Source: Terriglobia bacterium (lineage in GTDB: Bacteria; Acidobacteriota; Terriglobia; Bryobacterales; UBA6623). From it: a stretch of 64,000 nt of DNA. The notes beneath the pieces were generated by a model that saw only the letters and a list, made by a program, of their open reading frames with translations, searched no databases and was not told the origin of the DNA. The stretch covers positions 62,001-126,000 of the forward strand of contig VXMF01000048.1 of NCBI GenBank assembly GCA_009841225.1. The letters run 5' to 3'. Shown here one piece after another: positions 40,218-51,813 of this stretch. Within the stretch, counting starts at the first letter, position 1, and every line of letters starts with the position of its first letter. Made by a program: the position numbers and the translations under genes.

Positions 40218-40294
40218 CGGGGCGTAGCGCAGCCTGGTAGCGCGCTTGCTTCGGGAGCAAGAGGTCCCGAGTTCAAATCTCGGCGCCCCGACCA
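40218..40294 (+). tRNA. tRNA-Pro (anticodon CGG)
   Basis: A complete cloverleaf: acceptor CGGGGCG pairs with CGCCCCG, discriminator A, encoded CCA. The D arm contains AGCCTGGTAGC. The anticodon stem CTTGC/GCAAG frames the loop TTCGGGA, giving anticodon CGG for proline. The T arm is CGAGTTCAAATCTCG. Its 3' half is repeated exactly at 51642, marking it as an integration site; the gene itself stays intact. Confidence 0.96.
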
Positions 40295-40301
40295 TTCTTC
40301 C
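40248..40301 (+). repeat. Left attachment repeat (attL-like), tRNA-Pro 3' half
   Basis: 54 bases from the anticodon arm of tRNA-Pro to seven bases past CCA, identical to 51642-51695. The next base differs (T here, C there), as does the base before, so the match is exactly delimited. Confidence 0.9.
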
Positions 40302-40379
40302 TTAATGTTCTCAACGACTTAGGTAAACCAACCACGGTCGATAACGTTCGAACTATTCTAAAACTGTTCCAGAAGTCCG

Positions 40380-40604
40380 TCAGTTCGATATTGGTGTTCC
40401 AAAACCCTCCGTATGCTCGTTCGCCTGCCGGTCGAGCCGCGCAAGCGCCTCGCGGAGCATCTGGAACTTGGCCTGGCTGTACCGCTTGAAGACAGCGGAG
40501 TCGTCCTGCCGCAACGCTTGCGCCACAAAGTGATCGGCAACCCCGCCTGCACTGAGGCGGGTTGCGAACGTGTGACGCTTATTCCGAGCTCGGAATAACG
40601 ACAT
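40380..40604 (-). pseudogene. Island integrase, C-terminal fragment (split by RIT insertion)
   Basis: 74 residues forming the end of a tyrosine recombinase: RHTFATRLSAGGVADHFVAQ carries the catalytic Arg and the following histidine region, and VFKRYSQAKFQML carries the nucleophilic Tyr. The first residues MSLFRARNK come from the end of the inserted element, not the integrase. The missing N-terminal part is on the same strand beyond the insertion, ending at YELRH. Joining the two at the shared TGACGC gives an uninterrupted YELRHTFATRL. Confidence 0.9.
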
Positions 40605-40709
40605 AATTCCGAGTCCGGGATTATTCCGAGTTGGTCCAAGCGCTCGGCGAGAGTGCTTGTAGTTTCAACAGGTTGAGGGGCGCCACGCCATGGATAACGG
40701 AATAATCCC
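40573..40709. repeat. Left end of RIT element: target repeat, palindrome and recombinase-site array
   Basis: Order: TGACGC (40573-40578), the direct repeat shared with 43997-44002; a perfect 20-bp palindrome TTATTCCGAGCTCGGAATAA (40579-40598); a 33-base segment (40602-40634) that matches the inverted right end at 32 of 33 positions; and CGGAATAATCCC (40698-40709), the exact reverse complement of GGGATTATTCCG at 40617-40628. The common core is ATTCCGAG. These look like recombinase binding sites. Confidence 0.88.
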
Positions 40710-40726
40710 GTCGGCAGACCCACACC

Positions 40727-41989
40727 GTGAAGCCGGCCGCATGCTTGGGAATACCTATTTCCATTCATCACGTATTCCCAAATCCGGACCATCAACAGAG
40801 GTTGCGAGCGGGGCCTCTGGCCGGCGACATCGACGGATTCGCTGCTTGGCTTGCAGGCGAAGGGTATAGCCATTCGTCAGCCAGGGACAAGCTTCTACTC
40901 ACCGCCGACCTGAGCCTGTGGCTTGCAGAGCAAGGTCTGGAGCTCGAAACTGTCAACGAGCAGCGGGTCGAGGCGTTCATGCACTCGCGCAAGGCGCGCC
41001 GAGGCGACCCGGCCACCGGTCGGCAATTGCTGGCGTACTTGCGAGACCGCAACCGCGTGCCGCCCGCCTTGTGCGCCCCGCCAGGCGACGGCGGGCTTGA
41101 GCGAATCGCATGCACGTACGAACGCTTCCTGATCGAACAGCGGGCGGTCAGCCCCGCCACGGTAAGGAACTACCTGCCCGTTGTGCGTGCCTTTCTCGAC
41201 GAGCGCCTCGGTTCCCGGGAAATCGATCTGGCCAGTCTGTCGGCTCGGCACGTCAACCAGTTCGTCCGGCGCGAAGCCGAACGTCTGAGCCGTTCCCGCG
41301 CCAAGCTGGTCGTGACGGCGCTGCGCAGCTTCCTCCGTCACTTGCACCAGCAGGGGGAGCTGCCAGCGGACCTCGCCAGCGCAGTGCTGCCGGTCATGCG
41401 CTGGCGCCTGTCCGGGTTGCCGAGATCACTGGCTCCGGAACAGGTCATGGCGCTCCTCGCCAGCTGTGATCGGGAGACGTTGTCAGGACGGCGGGACTAC
41501 GCCATCCTGCTCTTGCTGGCCCGTCTGGGGCTGCGCGCCGGTGAGGTGGCTGCCCTCACGCTCGACGATTTCGATTGGCATGCAGGGATCGTCACCGTTG
41601 CTGGCAAGGGGCAGAGACGCGAGCCGCTGCCGCTGCCCCACGAGATCGGAGAGGCCTTGGCGGCCTACCTACAGGACGGTCGACCAGCTTGTGCGACCCG
41701 GCGGCTGTTCATTCGCTCCAAGGCCCCCCTTCAGGGTTTCCGCTCCGCCGCCGCCATCTGCGACATCGTGCGGCGTGCGTTGGCGCGGGCCGGGATCGAC
41801 TCGGCCTTCAAGGGAGCGCACTTGCTGCGCCATTCCCTGGCCACCGGCATGCTCCGCAACGGTGCCTCGCTGGAAGATATCGGAGAAGTCCTGCGACACC
41901 GTCATCCGGAAACCACCCAGATTTATGCCAAGGTCGATCTGGAATCGATGCGCGCCCTGGCGCCAGTCTGGCCCGGAGGTGTGGCATGA
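40727..41989 (+). CDS. Tyrosine recombinase, first of the trio (RitA-like)
   Basis: A 420-residue site-specific recombinase. An N-terminal extension of about 120 residues precedes the SAM-like core-binding domain (YERFLIEQRAVSPATVRNYLPVV). The catalytic domain is complete: Arg in LGLRAGEVAAL, Lys in VTVAGKGQRRE, H-LL-R in GAHLLRHSLATGML, His in VLRHRHPETT and Tyr in QIYAKVDLESM. The start is a GTG, the only plausible start between the left array and the conserved region. The stop overlaps the next start. Confidence 0.92.
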   Translation: MKPAACLGIPISIHHVFPNPDHQQRLRAGPLAGDIDGFAAWLAGEGYSHSSARDKLLLTADLSLWLAEQGLELETVNEQRVEAFMHSRKARRGDPATGRQLLAYLRDRNRVPPALCAPPGDGGLERIACTYERFLIEQRAVSPATVRNYLPVVRAFLDERLGSREIDLASLSARHVNQFVRREAERLSRSRAKLVVTALRSFLRHLHQQGELPADLASAVLPVMRWRLSGLPRSLAPEQVMALLASCDRETLSGRRDYAILLLLARLGLRAGEVAALTLDDFDWHAGIVTVAGKGQRREPLPLPHEIGEALAAYLQDGRPACATRRLFIRSKAPLQGFRSAAAICDIVRRALARAGIDSAFKGAHLLRHSLATGMLRNGASLEDIGEVLRHRHPETTQIYAKVDLESMRALAPVWPGGVA

Positions 41990-42921
41990 CCGACCTCCAA
42001 CACCTCTTGGATGAGTATCTCGCCACGCGCCGCGCCCTGGGGGCCGAGCTCAGGCTGTGCGGACGCCTGCTGCAGCGCTTTGTCGCGTTCGCGGCGCAGC
42101 GCGAGGCCGCCTTCCTGACCACAGAGCTGGCGCAGCAGTGGGCGAGCCAGCCCCGCGATGCGCAGCCGGCCCAGTGGGCGAATCGTTTCGGCATGGTGCG
42201 TCGCTTCGCTCTCTATGCGCACGCCGCCGACTCGCGCCACGAAGTTCCGCCGCCCGGTCTGCTGCGTGGCAGCTATCGCCGCCCGCAGCCTTACATCTAC
42301 AGCGACAAGGAGATCGCCGACCTGCTGGGCGCGGCACGCGGCCTGTCCGCGACCACCGGACTGCGGCCGTGCACCTATGCCGGGCTGCTGGCGCTGCTGG
42401 CTGTGACCGGGATGCGACCGAGCGAGCCGCTGGGCCTGGACCGCGATGACGTCGACCTCGAGGCCGGCGTACTGACAGTGCGCCAGGGCAAATTCGGCAA
42501 GTCGCGGAACATTCCGGTTCACGCCTCGACCCAAGCGGCGCTGGCCCGTTACGCGGCGCAACGGGATCGCCTCTGTCCACAACCGCTCGACCCGGGCTTC
42601 TTCCTCTCCAAGCGCGGCACCCGGATCACCGAATGGGCGTTGCGCTGGACGTTTGTCCAGCTGTCCCGGCAAGTCGGCCTGCGAGGCCCGTCGGATTCCC
42701 GCGGCCCCCGCCTGCAGGACTTCAGGCATCGGTTTGCCGTCGCGACGCTGCTGAGCTGGTATCGCAACGGTGCCGACATCGAACGCCACCTGCCGCGCCT
42801 GGCCACCTATCTCGGCCACGCCCACGTGAGCGACACGTACTGGTATCTCAGCGCCACTCCGGAACTGCTGGAGGCGGCCGCCCGACGGCTCGACCATCGC
42901 GCTTGGAGGCCACTGCGATGA
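41986..42921 (+). CDS. Tyrosine recombinase, second of the trio (RitB-like)
   Basis: A 311-residue recombinase. It starts MTDLQHLLDEYLATRRALGAEL, the usual start of second-position recombinases in such trios. The catalytic residues are present in somewhat unusual settings: Arg in VTGMRPSEPLGL, Lys in GKFGKSRNIPV, DFRHRFAVATLL instead of HxLRH, His in YLGHAHVSDT and Tyr in YWYLSATPELLE. The ATG overlaps the previous stop and its own stop overlaps the third gene, so all three should be translated together. Confidence 0.92.
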   Translation: MTDLQHLLDEYLATRRALGAELRLCGRLLQRFVAFAAQREAAFLTTELAQQWASQPRDAQPAQWANRFGMVRRFALYAHAADSRHEVPPPGLLRGSYRRPQPYIYSDKEIADLLGAARGLSATTGLRPCTYAGLLALLAVTGMRPSEPLGLDRDDVDLEAGVLTVRQGKFGKSRNIPVHASTQAALARYAAQRDRLCPQPLDPGFFLSKRGTRITEWALRWTFVQLSRQVGLRGPSDSRGPRLQDFRHRFAVATLLSWYRNGADIERHLPRLATYLGHAHVSDTYWYLSATPELLEAAARRLDHRAWRPLR

Positions 42922-43823
42922 AGGCCGCTGACTTCCCCTCTCTGCTGGCCGCGTTCTTCACCCGGCGTCTGCTGCAGCAGCGCCAGGCCAGCCCGCATAC
43001 GATCACCAGCTATCGCGACACCTTCCGGCTGCTCGTCGGGTATGCCCAGCGGGAACTGCACAAACCACCGCGCCGTCTGGCCCTCGATGACTTGGACCCT
43101 GACTTCCTCGGCGCATTCCTGACCTATCTCGAGACCGAGCGCGGCAACGACGCCCGCACACGCAACACGCGTCTGGCCGCGATCCGTTCTTTTTTCGGCT
43201 ATGTCGCAGCGCACGAGCCGCAGCACGCGGCCCTCGCTCAACGCGTCCTGGCCATGCCCAGCAAGCGTTACACGCGCCGTCCAGTGGACTTCCTCAGCCG
43301 CGAGGAAGTCGATGCCCTGCTGCAAGGCCCGGATCTGCGAACGCGAGCCGGGCGCCGCGACCGCACTCTGCTGCTGGTGGCGGTCCAAACCGGACTGCGG
43401 GCGTCGGAGCTGATCAAGCTGCGCCGGGAAGATGTCGAGCTTGGCCCGGGATCCCACCTGCGCTGTCAGGGCAAGGGTCGCAAGCAGCGCTGCACTCCAC
43501 TGCGCAGGGACTCGCTAGCGGCCTTGCGGCAGTGGCTGGACGAACTCGGCGACGAACCGGGCAGTCCCGTCTTTCCGAACCAACGTGGCGGCTCACTCAG
43601 CCACGACGGGCTGGCCTACGTCCTGGCCAAGCACTTGGCCGTTGCCCGGACCGCCTGCCCCACGTTGAAGAAAAAACGGGTCACGCCCCACGTGCTGCGT
43701 CACACTGCGGCCATGGACCGGCTGCAAAACGGTGTCGACCGCGCCGTGATCGCGCTGTGGCTTGGGCACGAGTCCGTCGAAACCGCCTACATCTACCTGC
43801 ACGCCGATCTCACGCTGAAGTGA
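42918..43823 (+). CDS. Tyrosine recombinase, third of the trio (RitC-like), possibly shortened by an in-frame TGA
   Basis: A 301-residue recombinase with all catalytic residues: Arg in TGLRASELIKL, Lys in CQGKGRKQRC, HVLRHTAAM, His in LWLGHESVET and Tyr in AYIYLHADLTLK. The stop TGA comes right after LTLK. The same frame continues for 29 more codons as AALAKTTPTQGKSARYRP and DDDVLAFLSSL before the next stop at 43911-43913. From memory, recombinases of this group usually end with just such a tail, so a nonsense change in the last part of the gene is likely. The catalytic Tyr lies before it, so the enzyme may still work. Confidence 0.9.
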   Translation: MKAADFPSLLAAFFTRRLLQQRQASPHTITSYRDTFRLLVGYAQRELHKPPRRLALDDLDPDFLGAFLTYLETERGNDARTRNTRLAAIRSFFGYVAAHEPQHAALAQRVLAMPSKRYTRRPVDFLSREEVDALLQGPDLRTRAGRRDRTLLLVAVQTGLRASELIKLRREDVELGPGSHLRCQGKGRKQRCTPLRRDSLAALRQWLDELGDEPGSPVFPNQRGGSLSHDGLAYVLAKHLAVARTACPTLKKKRVTPHVLRHTAAMDRLQNGVDRAVIALWLGHESVETAYIYLHADLTLK

Positions 43824-44982
43824 GCGGCCCTGGCCAAGACGACTCCAACACAAGGGAAGTCGGCCCGATACCGCCCCGATGACGACGTGCTGGCCTTCCT
43901 GAGCAGCCTGTGATTATTCCGAGTACGATGCGCCCAAATGTACGAGCACCGCCCAAGTTCCACTGCCAACTCGGAATAATCCAGGACTCGGAATTATGAC
44001 GCAACTCGTACAACGCGAAATACTCGACACCCGCGTGCTTGAGCGTGGCCTTCCAAGCCTTCCGCACGTTCGAGATGTACGGACGCTGGCTGTGACGAGG
44101 TGAAGGGAACAGGTATTCTGCGCCCTTTGCCTCGGCGAGCTGAGCCGCGAAGGCTTGTTTAGCGGGACCGGTCATGGGCATGTCCGCGATGCCGCCCGGC
44201 GTCTTCGAGCCCGCAACGTGCACGGTCTCGTTCGCTAGGTCGACATGCTCCTGCTTCATCCGCAGCAGTTCGCGGTACGGCCGGAGCCCCATTTCGACCA
44301 TGATGACGATGACGTTTCGCAGGTAGCTCGGAGCATGCAGTAGAATTCGCTCCTGCTCGCTCGCCGTCATGTAGTGTGGCTTGCGCGTCGAGCCGGTCAG
44401 GCGAACCGGAAACTCGACAGCCTGACAGGGATTGGCCGCCAGGAGTTTTTGTTGCACTGCAACATTCAAGATGCGTCGCAACACGCGGAACTCCCGGTGC
44501 ACTCCTGCCGGCCTCAGCGCGCCGCCGAGGCGGATGCCGAACTTCGTGTGAATCCTCCTTTTCGCGTGGAGCCGATCGTCGAGATACCGCTCGATGAGCT
44601 CTGCCGTGATCTCTTGCAAGCGCATCGAGCCGAAGACCGGCGAGAGGGTCTTGATGATCACGAGGTTGCCCTCGTGGGTTTGTTCGGACCGGTAGGGCGG
44701 CTTCGACCGTCGTTCGAGAAACCACTCGCACCACTCGTCGAAGGTCAGCTTCTTGCCGGCCTGAATTGCAGCGAGCGATCCGTCGTCGCGCGAGTCGAGC
44801 CGGTCGCGCAGAAAGCGCTCGGCCTCGTCGCGGTCCTCGGTTCTCGCCGACTCCTTGACGATGCGGTCGTCTTGGGCGCGAGGGACTGCTGGGCGTGATG
44901 CCGGTCTACCTTCCGTCTTCGGGGACGCTTTCGACAAAGCTCGTGAGCGTGTTCCCGGGCAATGCGGCGCTGGGAGCGCCAA
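43810..44982 (-). pseudogene. Island tyrosine integrase, N-terminal part (split by RIT, 5' end also replaced)
   Basis: The integrase portion runs from about 44876 down to 44002: an N-terminal arm (TEDRDEAERFLRDRLDSRDDG), core-binding domain (LTFDEWCEWFLERRSKPPY) and catalytic domain with Arg in EMGLRPYRELLRMKQEHVD and Lys in VHVAGSKTPGG, ending at FALYELRH. Residues after that are translated from the inserted RIT end and are foreign. The first ~35 residues (MALPAPH to PRAQD) lie antisense to the ornithine cyclodeaminase gene, so the true integrase start has been lost in another rearrangement near 44880. The C-terminal fragment is at 40380. Confidence 0.88.
43912..44002. repeat. Right end of RIT element: recombinase-site array and target repeat
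   Basis: GATTATTCCGAGT (43912-43924) is a perfect inverted match to ACTCGGAATAATC (43969-43981) with 44 bases between. The terminal 33 bases, 43966-43998, are the reverse complement of the left end with one mismatch. TGACGC at 43997-44002 repeats the left flank. The array mirrors the left end but lacks its outer palindrome. Confidence 0.88.
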
Positions 44983-45725
44983 GCCGCCAGGCGTTGATCG
45001 CAGTCTTCGATTGCGAGACGGGGACGCCGCTTGCGGTGATGCACGGCGAGGTGGTCACCGCGATGCGCACCGCTGCGGGATCGGCCTTGGCGGCTCGGAT
45101 TCTGGCGCGCGCCGAGGCTGATGTATTGACCATTGTCGGAACTGGCGTTCAGGCCCGCGCTCATGCGTACGCGATCTTGCGGATTAGGAAGATTCGCGAG
45201 ATACGCGTTGCCGGTCGAAACTCAGAGCGCGCTCGGGCGCTGGCAGCCGAGCTCGAAAGGGAAGTCGGCGCGCTGGCCCGAGCGCTCGATTCGATCGAAG
45301 CCTCTGTTGCCGGCGCCGCAGTGGTCTGCGCGCCGACACATTCGGTTGATCCGGTCATTCGCGGCGCTTGGCTCGAGCCGAGAACGCACGTCAATTCGGT
45401 CCGGCTGAACCCCCGCGGCCGTGAATTGGACGAAGAGGGCGTGAAGAAATCCTTGGTCGTGGTCGAATCGCGGCAGTCCGCGCTTGCGCCTGCGCCCGCA
45501 GGGGCGAACGGGCTACTTTGGGCGATTCGGGACGGCCTGATCAGCAAAGATCACGTTCACGCCGAAGTCGGCGAGCTGATTTCGGGGGCGATGCCCGGCC
45601 GGACTTCTCAAGATCAAATTACGGTGTACAAGTCCGTCGGAGTGGCCGTGCAGGACGCTGTGGCGGCAAACTTGGTCTTGAAGGCTGCGCGTGAGCGGGG
45701 CTCGGGCACAGAGGTGGAGTGGTAG
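44895..45725 (+). pseudogene. Ornithine cyclodeaminase/mu-crystallin family gene, 5'-truncated
   Basis: 276 residues of an NAD-binding OCD-family protein: MPVYLPSSGTLSTKLVSVFPGN, AVMHGEVVTAMRTAAGSALAAR, the Rossmann VLTIVGTGVQARAHAYA, HVNSVRLNPRGRELDEE, AEVGELISGAMPGRT and VYKSVGVAVQDAVAANLVL to a normal C-terminus. Intact members have about 50-60 more residues before PVYLPS, including part of the substrate-binding lobe. Here the frame meets a TGA at 44856-44858 and the upstream sequence belongs to the integrase on the other strand. The gene was therefore cut at about 44880. A product from GTG 44895 is possible but probably inactive. Confidence 0.8.
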
Positions 45726-51198: not shown

Positions 51199-51604
51199 AT
51201 GGCACGTCTTGAAGGCAAGGTCGCGCTGATCACCGGCGCCGGGCGCGGCATCGGGGCGGCAATTGCCGCGCCTATGCCGCTGAAGGAGCGAGCGTTGTCT
51301 GCGCGGCGCGTTCGCGGGACGAGGTCGAGCGGACAGTCGAGGGGATCTCCGGGCTGGCGGTCGTCTGCGACGTCACCGACCACTCCGCGGTCAAGCGTAT
51401 GTACGCCGCGGCGATCGAAAGATTCGGCGGCCTCGACATCGTCGTCGCCAACGCGGGAGGAAACCCCGACCGAGCACGCGTCGACGAGGGCGAAGCCGAA
51501 GGATGGGTCGCGACCATCGAGCTGAATCTGATCGGCGCCTTCTACACGATGAGAGAGGCCGTGCCCCACCTGAAGGAACGCGGCGCCGGGAAAATCATCT
51601 CGGT
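51199..51604 (+). pseudogene. Short-chain dehydrogenase/reductase, frameshifted and 3'-truncated at the island edge
   Basis: The first frame gives MARLEGKVALITGAGRGIGAAIA, the SDR cofactor motif TGxxxGxG. The match then moves to the next frame as RAYAAEGASVVCAARSRDEV, VCDVTDHSAVKRMYAAAIER and FGGLDIVVANAGGNPD, ending ELNLIGAFYTMREAVPHLKE and RGAGKIIS. The shift is explained by one missing C near 51266 (GCCGCGCCTAT where GCCCGCGCCTAT would keep frame). The gene stops abruptly at 51604, before the catalytic Ser-Tyr-Lys part, only 37 bases from the right attachment repeat. Confidence 0.85.
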
Positions 51605-51641
51605 TAGGAGGTGTCAGATGACCGGAATGTCAAAAGACGGG

Positions 51642-51695
51642 GCTTCGGGAGCAAGAGGTCCCGAGTTCAAATCTCGGCGCCCCGACCATTCTTCC
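51642..51695 (+). repeat. Right attachment repeat (attR-like), copy of tRNA-Pro 3' half
   Basis: 54 bases identical to 40248-40301, covering the anticodon loop, variable loop, T arm, acceptor 3' strand, CCA and seven bases beyond. No 5' half of a tRNA precedes it, so it is a target-site copy and not a gene. Confidence 0.9.
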
Positions 51696-51813
51696 CCGCT
51701 GGCTGTCAACACTCTTGTGCCGAGGCCACATTGCGCTCCGAAAACGGCGTTTCCTCCCAAGTAATGCCAGAGTATTGTTGACGGGAAGGCACTTGGCTCG
51801 CTATCTTGCCGCT

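What the first reader, a model, noticed from the sequence alone, without database searches (positions are those of the whole stretch)
40573..44002. Recombinase-trio element inserted into, and inactivating, the integrase of a tRNA island
Three overlapping tyrosine recombinase genes with inverted-repeat ends sit between two copies of TGACGC. On the minus strand the right flank codes ...YELRH and the left flank codes RHTFATRL..., the two halves of one integrase active site. Removing 40579-44002 gives an exact, in-frame YELRHTFATRL. This is a two-level nesting, one integrative element frozen by another, and the exact pre-insertion sequence can be reconstructed.
Basis: partly seen in the sequence, partly recalled or inferred. 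Interest (0 to 1): 0.8.

Follow-up and report, generated by a model that had tools for sequence, protein, structure and literature searches.

The report
RIT element targets recombinase active-site codons
A small jumping element made of three recombinase genes sits in the codons for the active-site Arg-His of an island integrase, and its relatives in several bacterial phyla repeatedly hit that same spot in other recombinase genes, so this looks like a DNA parasite that homes to the catalytic motif of other mobile elements' enzymes.

Summary
Removing 40579-44002 restores a continuous tyrosine integrase (YELRHTFATRL; Pfam Phage_integrase across the joint) beside tRNA-Pro, in an 11.4-kb island bounded by a 54-bp repeat. 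The insert is a RIT (recombinase-in-trio) element.

The integrase also lacks its N-terminus (fused to a truncated ornithine cyclodeaminase), so which damage came first is unknown. The RIT itself looks decayed: ritC has a premature stop.

The new result came from relatives. Eleven other RITs found by similarity (14 with a motif search), from four phyla, also sit between the codons of the catalytic R-H of tyrosine recombinases, including other RITs' genes. Related families sit in other conserved motifs: ArdC HExxH, IS91 zinc finger, IS66, IS21.

Simple insertions read target-6bp-[RIT]-6bp-[20-bp palindrome]-6bp-target. The palindrome is always on the same side of the target; the genes point either way. 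The inner 6 bp is RH-codon type in 12 of 16 cases (background 0.9%). Palindrome-only and RIT-only junctions look like recombination between two recombinase genes.

The site preference is strong; the circle mechanism is inferred. Two founding RIT papers could not be read.

The parts
40218..40294 (+). tRNA-Pro (CGG), integration site of the island
   Evidence: ARAGORN
40248..40301 (+). island left attachment repeat (3' part of tRNA-Pro)
   Evidence: 54-bp exact direct repeat with 51642-51695
51642..51695 (+). island right attachment repeat
40380..40572 (-). 3' part of the island integrase (C-terminal half, HTFATRL...KRYSQ...)
   Evidence: PF00589 on the joined protein
40573..40578 (-). X3: 6-bp core GCGTCA (codons of Arg-His) next to the palindrome
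40579..40598 (.). P: 20-bp perfect palindrome TTATTCCGAGCTCGGAATAA, always on the 3' side of the target in relatives
40598..40603 (.). X2: inner 6-bp core ACGACA between palindrome and RIT end; RH-codon type (overlaps the palindrome's last base; the boundary is ambiguous by one base)
40604..40634 (.). left RIT end (TAATTCCGAG + N7 + TTATTCCGAG), arm of the long inverted repeat
40727..41989 (+). ritA, tyrosine recombinase
   Evidence: ORF; PF00589 9.7e-26
41986..42921 (+). ritB, tyrosine recombinase
   Evidence: ORF; PF00589 1e-16
42918..43823 (+). ritC, tyrosine recombinase, shortened by a premature TGA at 43821-43823
   Evidence: PF00589 2.4e-28; relatives continue about 30 aa
43824..43913 (+). 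former ritC tail (AALAKTTPT...VLAFLSSL), still in frame after the stop
43966..43996 (.). right RIT end, other arm of the inverted repeat
43997..44002 (-). X1: 6-bp core GCGTCA on the palindrome-free side
44003..44890 (-). 5' part of the island integrase (ends ...YEL); its own N-terminus is missing
44895..45725 (+). ornithine cyclodeaminase lacking its first ~54 residues, abutting the truncated integrase
   Evidence: PF02423 2.8e-58, profile 55-312

Best explanation
The insert is a RIT element of a clade that site-specifically inserts into the DNA coding the catalytic Arg-His (HxxR box: LRHT/S/A) of tyrosine recombinase genes. Recognition is of DNA, roughly CTG-NCGNCA-C, not of a protein. Each insertion reads target5'-X1-[L end, ritABC, R end]-X2-[palindrome P]-X3-target3', with X a 6-bp strand-exchange overlap that in RH targets holds the R-H codons. 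Proposed mechanism: the mobile form is a circle [RIT][X][P][X] with two equivalent P-X-RITend cores. Either core recombines with a target core, so the palindrome always ends up on the 3' side of the target while the genes point either way, and the unused core (X2) keeps the R-H codons of an earlier host gene. The core between RIT and P can also recombine with a second recombinase gene, giving T5-RIT-T5' and T3-P-T3' junctions. SHOWN: anatomy, exact rejoining, recurrent RH target, fixed polarity, RH-type X2, and the predicted junction classes. INFERRED: the circle, the order of strand exchange, and which Rit protein binds which arm. In this window the copy is probably immobile now, because ritC has a premature stop.
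For: Joined frame and Pfam for the window. Same RH position in relatives, joined frames continuous and PF00589 significant: L017 6e-23, L018 8e-18, L025 1e-23, L026 1e-14, L046 2e-21, L061 2e-7. L074 by split ritB at residues 246/247. L016 and L048 (two recombinase C-halves each), L052 (two N-halves) and L111 (one). L129, L135 and L142 from a motif search: the half-proteins begin at PF00589 position 133, the Arg. Motif with palindrome and RH core: 22 hits in 13 of 396 genomes against 1 for the reversed control. Palindrome on the target's 3' side in all simple RH insertions, with rit genes in both orientations. X2 is RH-type in 12 of 16 not found by motif search (15 of 19 in all), background 0.9%, binomial P about 4e-22 (shared ancestry not corrected). 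X1 and X3 differ by one base in 3 of 7, as a crossover overlap predicts. Palindrome-only junctions join two recombinase C-halves (L132, L133) or a recombinase and an ArdC half (L130). The RitC tree groups target classes (11 changes against 20.9 shuffled, 0 of 200 as low), with the ArdC-targeting clade (98% SH-aLRT) nested among RH-targeting elements.
Against: Not every element of the clade is in an RH box: the nearest relative with a resolved target (outer RIT of L121) is in a TnpB gene, L064 in DUF3489, L117 in IS66, and L062 in a gene I could not name by Pfam. About 15 further elements of the clade are cut by contig ends or have unresolved targets. L018's X2 (CAACCA) is not RH-type. No circle, excision or integration was observed; these are fixed sequences. 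Several loci are metagenome-assembled genomes, where RIT repeats could cause misjoins, which weakens the single-locus cases L016, L052 and L132 in particular.
Confidence: 0.82

Rival explanations
1. The RIT inserts with little sequence preference into mobile DNA; recombinase genes are hit because islands and plasmids are rich in them, and insertions in essential genes are lost.
For: Several RIT families do sit in transposase and other mobile-element genes. Literature reports RITs in radC, IS66 tnpA and a Tn6049 transposase (PMC3414803, PMC2864759).
Against: It does not explain the same dipeptide position in the window and 11 similarity-found relatives from four phyla, the fixed palindrome polarity, the RH-type X2 cores, or the clustering of target motif on the RIT tree.
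Confidence: 0.06
2. Target choice is by the 6-bp overlap alone: any NCGNCA match to the circle's X suffices, and RH boxes are hit because they contain it.
For: X1, X2 and X3 share the pattern NCGNCA or NAGGCA. L015's inner RIT sits in ritB at a different motif (TTCGGCAAG, KFGKSR).
Against: That hexamer occurs about once per 114 positions, so it cannot alone give recombinase RH boxes. Flanking CTG...CAC and the related HELTH codons of ArdC suggest recognition of flanking bases too.
Confidence: 0.15
3. RIT inserts anywhere by staggered cuts with a 6-bp duplication, as a transposase would; TGACGC is an ordinary target-site duplication.
For: Exact 6-bp repeats in the window and in 3 other parsed RH insertions.
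Against: All three genes are tyrosine recombinases, which make no gap-filled duplications (established knowledge). Copies differ in 3 of 7. The inner core X2 is a third, related 6-mer.
Confidence: 0.05
4. The palindrome plus X2 is a remnant of an earlier, separate insertion (a collapsed second RIT or a MITE-like relic), not part of the element.
For: P looks like the outer 10 bp of the two RIT ends fused head to head; P-only junctions exist.
Against: P is found beside most RITs whose ends could be read, across families with different end sequences, matching each family's own ends; independent relics would not be so regular.
Confidence: 0.15

Closest known systems
RIT (recombinase in trio) elements, C. 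metallidurans type (Van Houdt 2009/2012; Ricker 2013)
   Same: Three overlapping tyrosine recombinase genes ritA-B-C, about 3.4-3.5 kb, terminal inverted repeats of about 30 bp with nearby palindrome, insertion in mobile-element genes (PMC3414803, PMC2864759, PMC10214605).
   Different: Held papers describe no target motif, no unified end structure and no 6-bp core; PMC10214605 lists RIT target specificity as not tested. Here a clade is tied to R-H codons and the palindrome is given a fixed polarity.
SE elements (strand-biased circularizing integrative elements)
   Same: Tyrosine recombinases, 6-bp overlap between inverted motifs, and a flank carrying bases from the previous location (PMC10214605).
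   Different: Different gene set, gammaproteobacterial hosts, and no palindrome unit described; here the remembered core is internal (X2).
[quoted passage not shown]
   Same: Three integrase-type genes needed together; circular form (PMC5385486).
   Different: They have a fourth gene ginD, which this element lacks.
Tn554 family
   Same: Several tyrosine recombinases, 6-bp flank effect, target specificity (PMC10214605).
   Different: Different genes (TnpA/B/C); by general knowledge its target is a fixed host site, whereas this clade hits a motif shared by many recombinase genes.
Homing introns and inteins (from general knowledge)
   Same: Exploit the conserved DNA of active-site codons as a target.
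   Different: They use endonucleases and splice out; a RIT destroys the gene it enters.

Membership tests
RIT elements | three adjacent, overlapping tyrosine recombinase genes in order A-B-C | tested here: met
   ORFs overlap by 4 bp, all PF00589
RIT elements | RitC-specific extra C-terminal helix (PMC8138268) | tested here: not met
   Premature TGA at 43821-43823; the remaining ~30 codons are still in frame, so this is a decayed member rather than a different family
RIT elements | catalytic R..HxxR..Y in all three proteins | tested here: met
   By inspection: GLR / HLLRH / Y in A, GMR / DFRH / Y in B (HxxR box reads QDFR), GLR / HVLRH / Y in C; PF00589 in all
RIT elements | length about 3.5 kb with ~30-bp terminal inverted repeats and palindrome | tested here: met
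   36-bp repeat at 94%, 20-bp palindrome
RIT elements | mobility | not testable with these tools
   Only inferred from insertions in different genes
RH-targeting RIT clade (proposed here) | insertion between the codons of the catalytic R-H of a tyrosine recombinase | tested here: met
GInt | ginD beside three integrase-like genes | tested here: not met
   No fourth gene between the ends
[quoted passage not shown]
   Not searched directly; the insert holds only three XerC/D-like recombinases
tRNA-targeted genomic island (host of the insertion) | integrase beside a tRNA, direct repeats of the tRNA 3' end at both borders | tested here: met
   54-bp repeat 40248-40301 / 51642-51695

The most novel reading that the evidence does not exclude
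RIT elements are a class of motif-seeking parasites of other mobile elements. Each family reads the DNA of one conserved catalytic or metal-binding motif (recombinase R-H, ArdC HExxH, IS91 zinc finger, IS66, IS21 IstA). It integrates through palindrome-core-end sites by a fixed arm rule, records its previous target in an internal 6-bp core, and can recombine two target genes with each other, disabling rival recombinases (including other RITs) as it spreads.
Probability: 0.6. Interest if true: 0.87.

Novelty: new variant of a known kind. Interest (0 to 1): 0.8.

Why it matters
RITs have been known since 2009, but the held literature lists their target choice and excision as untested and calls the need for three recombinases hard to understand (PMC3414803, PMC10214605). 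A defined attB (about 15 bp around an R-H codon pair), a defined attP (palindrome-6bp-end) and an arm rule make integration directly testable in a plasmid assay. It would also be an unusual ecology: a mobile element whose landing site is the active site of its competitors, with nested RIT-in-RIT insertions as the visible result. The target is common to most tyrosine recombinase genes, so it is a broad haven that mostly spares housekeeping functions, apart perhaps from Xer.

Tried and rejected
Reading the outer TGACGC pair as a plain duplication: rejected, because copies differ in relatives. Taking the outermost 10 bp as the inverted repeat: rejected, because the 36-bp repeat defines the end and the extra 25 bp is the palindrome unit. 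Looking for a second copy of this RIT in the same genome: none by protein beyond weak recombinase hits, and the full palindrome only here. A close intact copy of the island integrase in 297 genomes of the phylum: none at E <= 1e-60, so support for the join rests on Pfam and a distant full-length plasmid homologue. Viral collections gave few RITs, and the short motif there gave mostly chance hits without a RIT. L019 (apparent RIT in ritB at residue 147) was dropped, because the break is a long hairpin that looks like an assembly artefact. L030 (ritB split near residue 244, different RIT family, ends not found) was kept only as possible. First off-by-one join corrected. The founding papers (Van Houdt 2009, Ricker 2013) and Nielsen 2017 are not held, so prior mention of the target motif cannot be excluded.
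Full report
WHAT IS THERE. The window carries tRNA-Pro(CGG) at 40218-40294. Its 3' part is repeated exactly over 54 bp at 40248-40301 and 51642-51695, which marks an island of about 11.4 kb. The first gene inside, on the minus strand, is a tyrosine integrase split by an insert. Joining 40300-40578 to 44003-44990 gives one frame...YFALYELRHTFATRLSAGG...KRYSQAKF.... Pfam finds a full Phage_integrase domain (6e-18, profile 2-171) plus an N-terminal SAM-like domain, and an intact plasmid integrase aligns over residues 41-346 without a break (24.6% identity, 7e-10). No close intact copy exists among 297 genomes of the phylum.

THE INSERT. Three genes overlapping by 4 bp, each with PF00589, make a RIT (recombinase in trio) element (definition in PMC3414803). 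Its long inverted repeat is 40599-40634 / 43966-44001 (36 bp, 94%). Outside the left end lies an extra unit: the perfect palindrome TTATTCCGAGCTCGGAATAA (40579-40598) and a 6-bp spacer ACGACA (40598-40603). ritC ends at a TGA (43821-43823), after which the conserved tail AALAKTTPT...VLAFLSSL continues in frame. The lost part appears to be the stretch that PMC8138268 describes as a RitC-specific C-terminal helix. The copy is therefore probably no longer active.

The integrase is broken twice. Its own N-terminus is gone, and near 44890 the frame meets an ornithine cyclodeaminase that lacks its first 54 profile positions. Which break came first cannot be told, so 'frozen by the RIT' is not established.

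THE SITE IS NOT RANDOM. Relatives were collected by RitC similarity from genome contigs, whole-genome searches and plasmids and their ends were read. The insert sits between the codons of the catalytic Arg-His of a tyrosine recombinase in the window, L017, L018, L025, L026, L046 and L061. Each restored frame is continuous and matches PF00589. It also does so in L074, by a split ritB, and in the rearranged loci L016, L048, L052 and L111. The hosts belong to Acidobacteriota, Myxococcota, Actinomycetota and Pseudomonadota, by record titles, taxonomy lines and the tree's origin labels. Targets include phage-type integrases and ritB- or ritC-like genes of other RITs, which produces RIT-in-RIT nesting. 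Three more (L129, L135, L142) came from a motif search and are not counted as independent evidence of frequency; their half-proteins begin exactly at PF00589 position 133, the Arg.

OTHER RIT FAMILIES HIT OTHER MOTIFS. Alphaproteobacterial plasmid RITs split ArdC at HELTH (annotated halves and PF18818). L060 and L078 split the IS91 zinc finger YNSCRNRHCPKC, L066 and L120 the IS66 GRKNWLF motif, L041 IS66 TnpB, L053 Uma2, L064 DUF3489, and the outer RIT of L121 a TnpB gene. L055 and L097 lie at IstA YDN by inspection. At DNA level HDLRH (CATGAYCTGCGNCAC) and HELTH (CATGAGCTGNNNCAC) share CATGANCTGNNNCAC. This offers a simple route for a target switch, and it fits the RitC tree, where the ArdC clade (98% SH-aLRT) is nested among RH-targeting elements. 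Target class follows the tree with 11 changes against 20.9 expected.

ANATOMY AND A RULE. Every simple RH insertion that could be parsed reads T5-X1-[RIT]-X2-[P]-X3-T3. P is always on the T3 side, while the rit genes point either way: P on the ritA side in the window, L025 and L046; on the ritC side in L017, L018, L026 and L061 (L061). X1 and X3 are the R-H codons and differ by one base in 3 of 7 cases, as a crossover overlap predicts and a fill-in duplication does not. X2, read outward from P, is also of R-H type in 12 of 16 elements not selected by motif (background 0.9%; binomial P about 4e-22, ignoring shared ancestry). In all cores seen, one arm is T5 or P and the other is a RIT end or T3. 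The exceptional junctions obey the same rule: T5-RIT-T5' (L052), T3-P-T3' (L132, L133), P on both sides of a RIT (L016, L048), and a P joining a recombinase half to an ArdC half (L130). The simplest model is a circle with two equivalent P-X-RITend cores. Either core may integrate; the other keeps a record of an earlier target and can later recombine with a second recombinase gene, causing rearrangement. This mechanism is inferred. Metagenome assemblies could have misjoined some of the rare junction types.

COMPARISON AND NOVELTY. By gene content, size and ends this is a RIT. It differs from GInts (no ginD) and is unlike SEs and Tn554 in gene set, though it shares a 6-bp overlap that carries bases from an earlier site (PMC10214605). 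PMC10214605 lists RIT target specificity as untested; PMC3414803 and PMC2864759 report insertions in radC, IS66 tnpA and a Tn6049 transposase without a motif. I rate it a new variant (a motif-targeted RIT clade) of a known kind, with high interest because an attB, an attP and a rule for joining them can now be tested directly.

Noticed in passing
window 44880-45725: Island integrase lacking its N-terminus is fused head to head with an N-truncated ornithine cyclodeaminase: a deletion scar independent of the RIT.
   Followed up: partly
window 51399-51700: A short-chain dehydrogenase gene is cut off just before the island's right attachment repeat, so both island borders hold broken genes.
   Followed up: no
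L105, L102, L103, L107, L104, L116, L049, L113 (between the split ArdC half and ritA): Plasmid RITs in ArdC carry cargo between the left end and ritA: chromate resistance (chrA), alkene reductase with TetR, hydrolases and others. These look like cargo-bearing RIT transposons.
   Followed up: partly
L132, L133, L130, L126, L137: Palindrome-only junctions without any RIT join C-terminal halves of two different genes in inverted orientation.
   Followed up: partly
L060, L078; L055, L097; L041, L066, L120: Other RIT families sit in the IS91 zinc finger, IS21 IstA YDN, IS66 TnpB and IS66 TnpC motifs, each with a palindrome matching its own ends.
   Followed up: partly
L015 / L121 (Bryobacterales contig JAJDZN010000168.1): Closest resolved relative (RitC 78% identical) is itself interrupted in ritB by another RIT in the opposite orientation, at the KFGKSR motif rather than RH; the outer RIT lies in a TnpB gene.
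   Followed up: yes
L051 (G297 contig 267): RIT with RitC 81% identical to the window; the RH-type core is followed by RHSLFVNMVR-stop, a target I could not identify.
   Followed up: partly
L149 (IMG/VR contig): RIT of this clade in a DUF3489-like sequence (RHSIRGAMAGALKKKLGL), whose motif also holds R-H codons.
   Followed up: no
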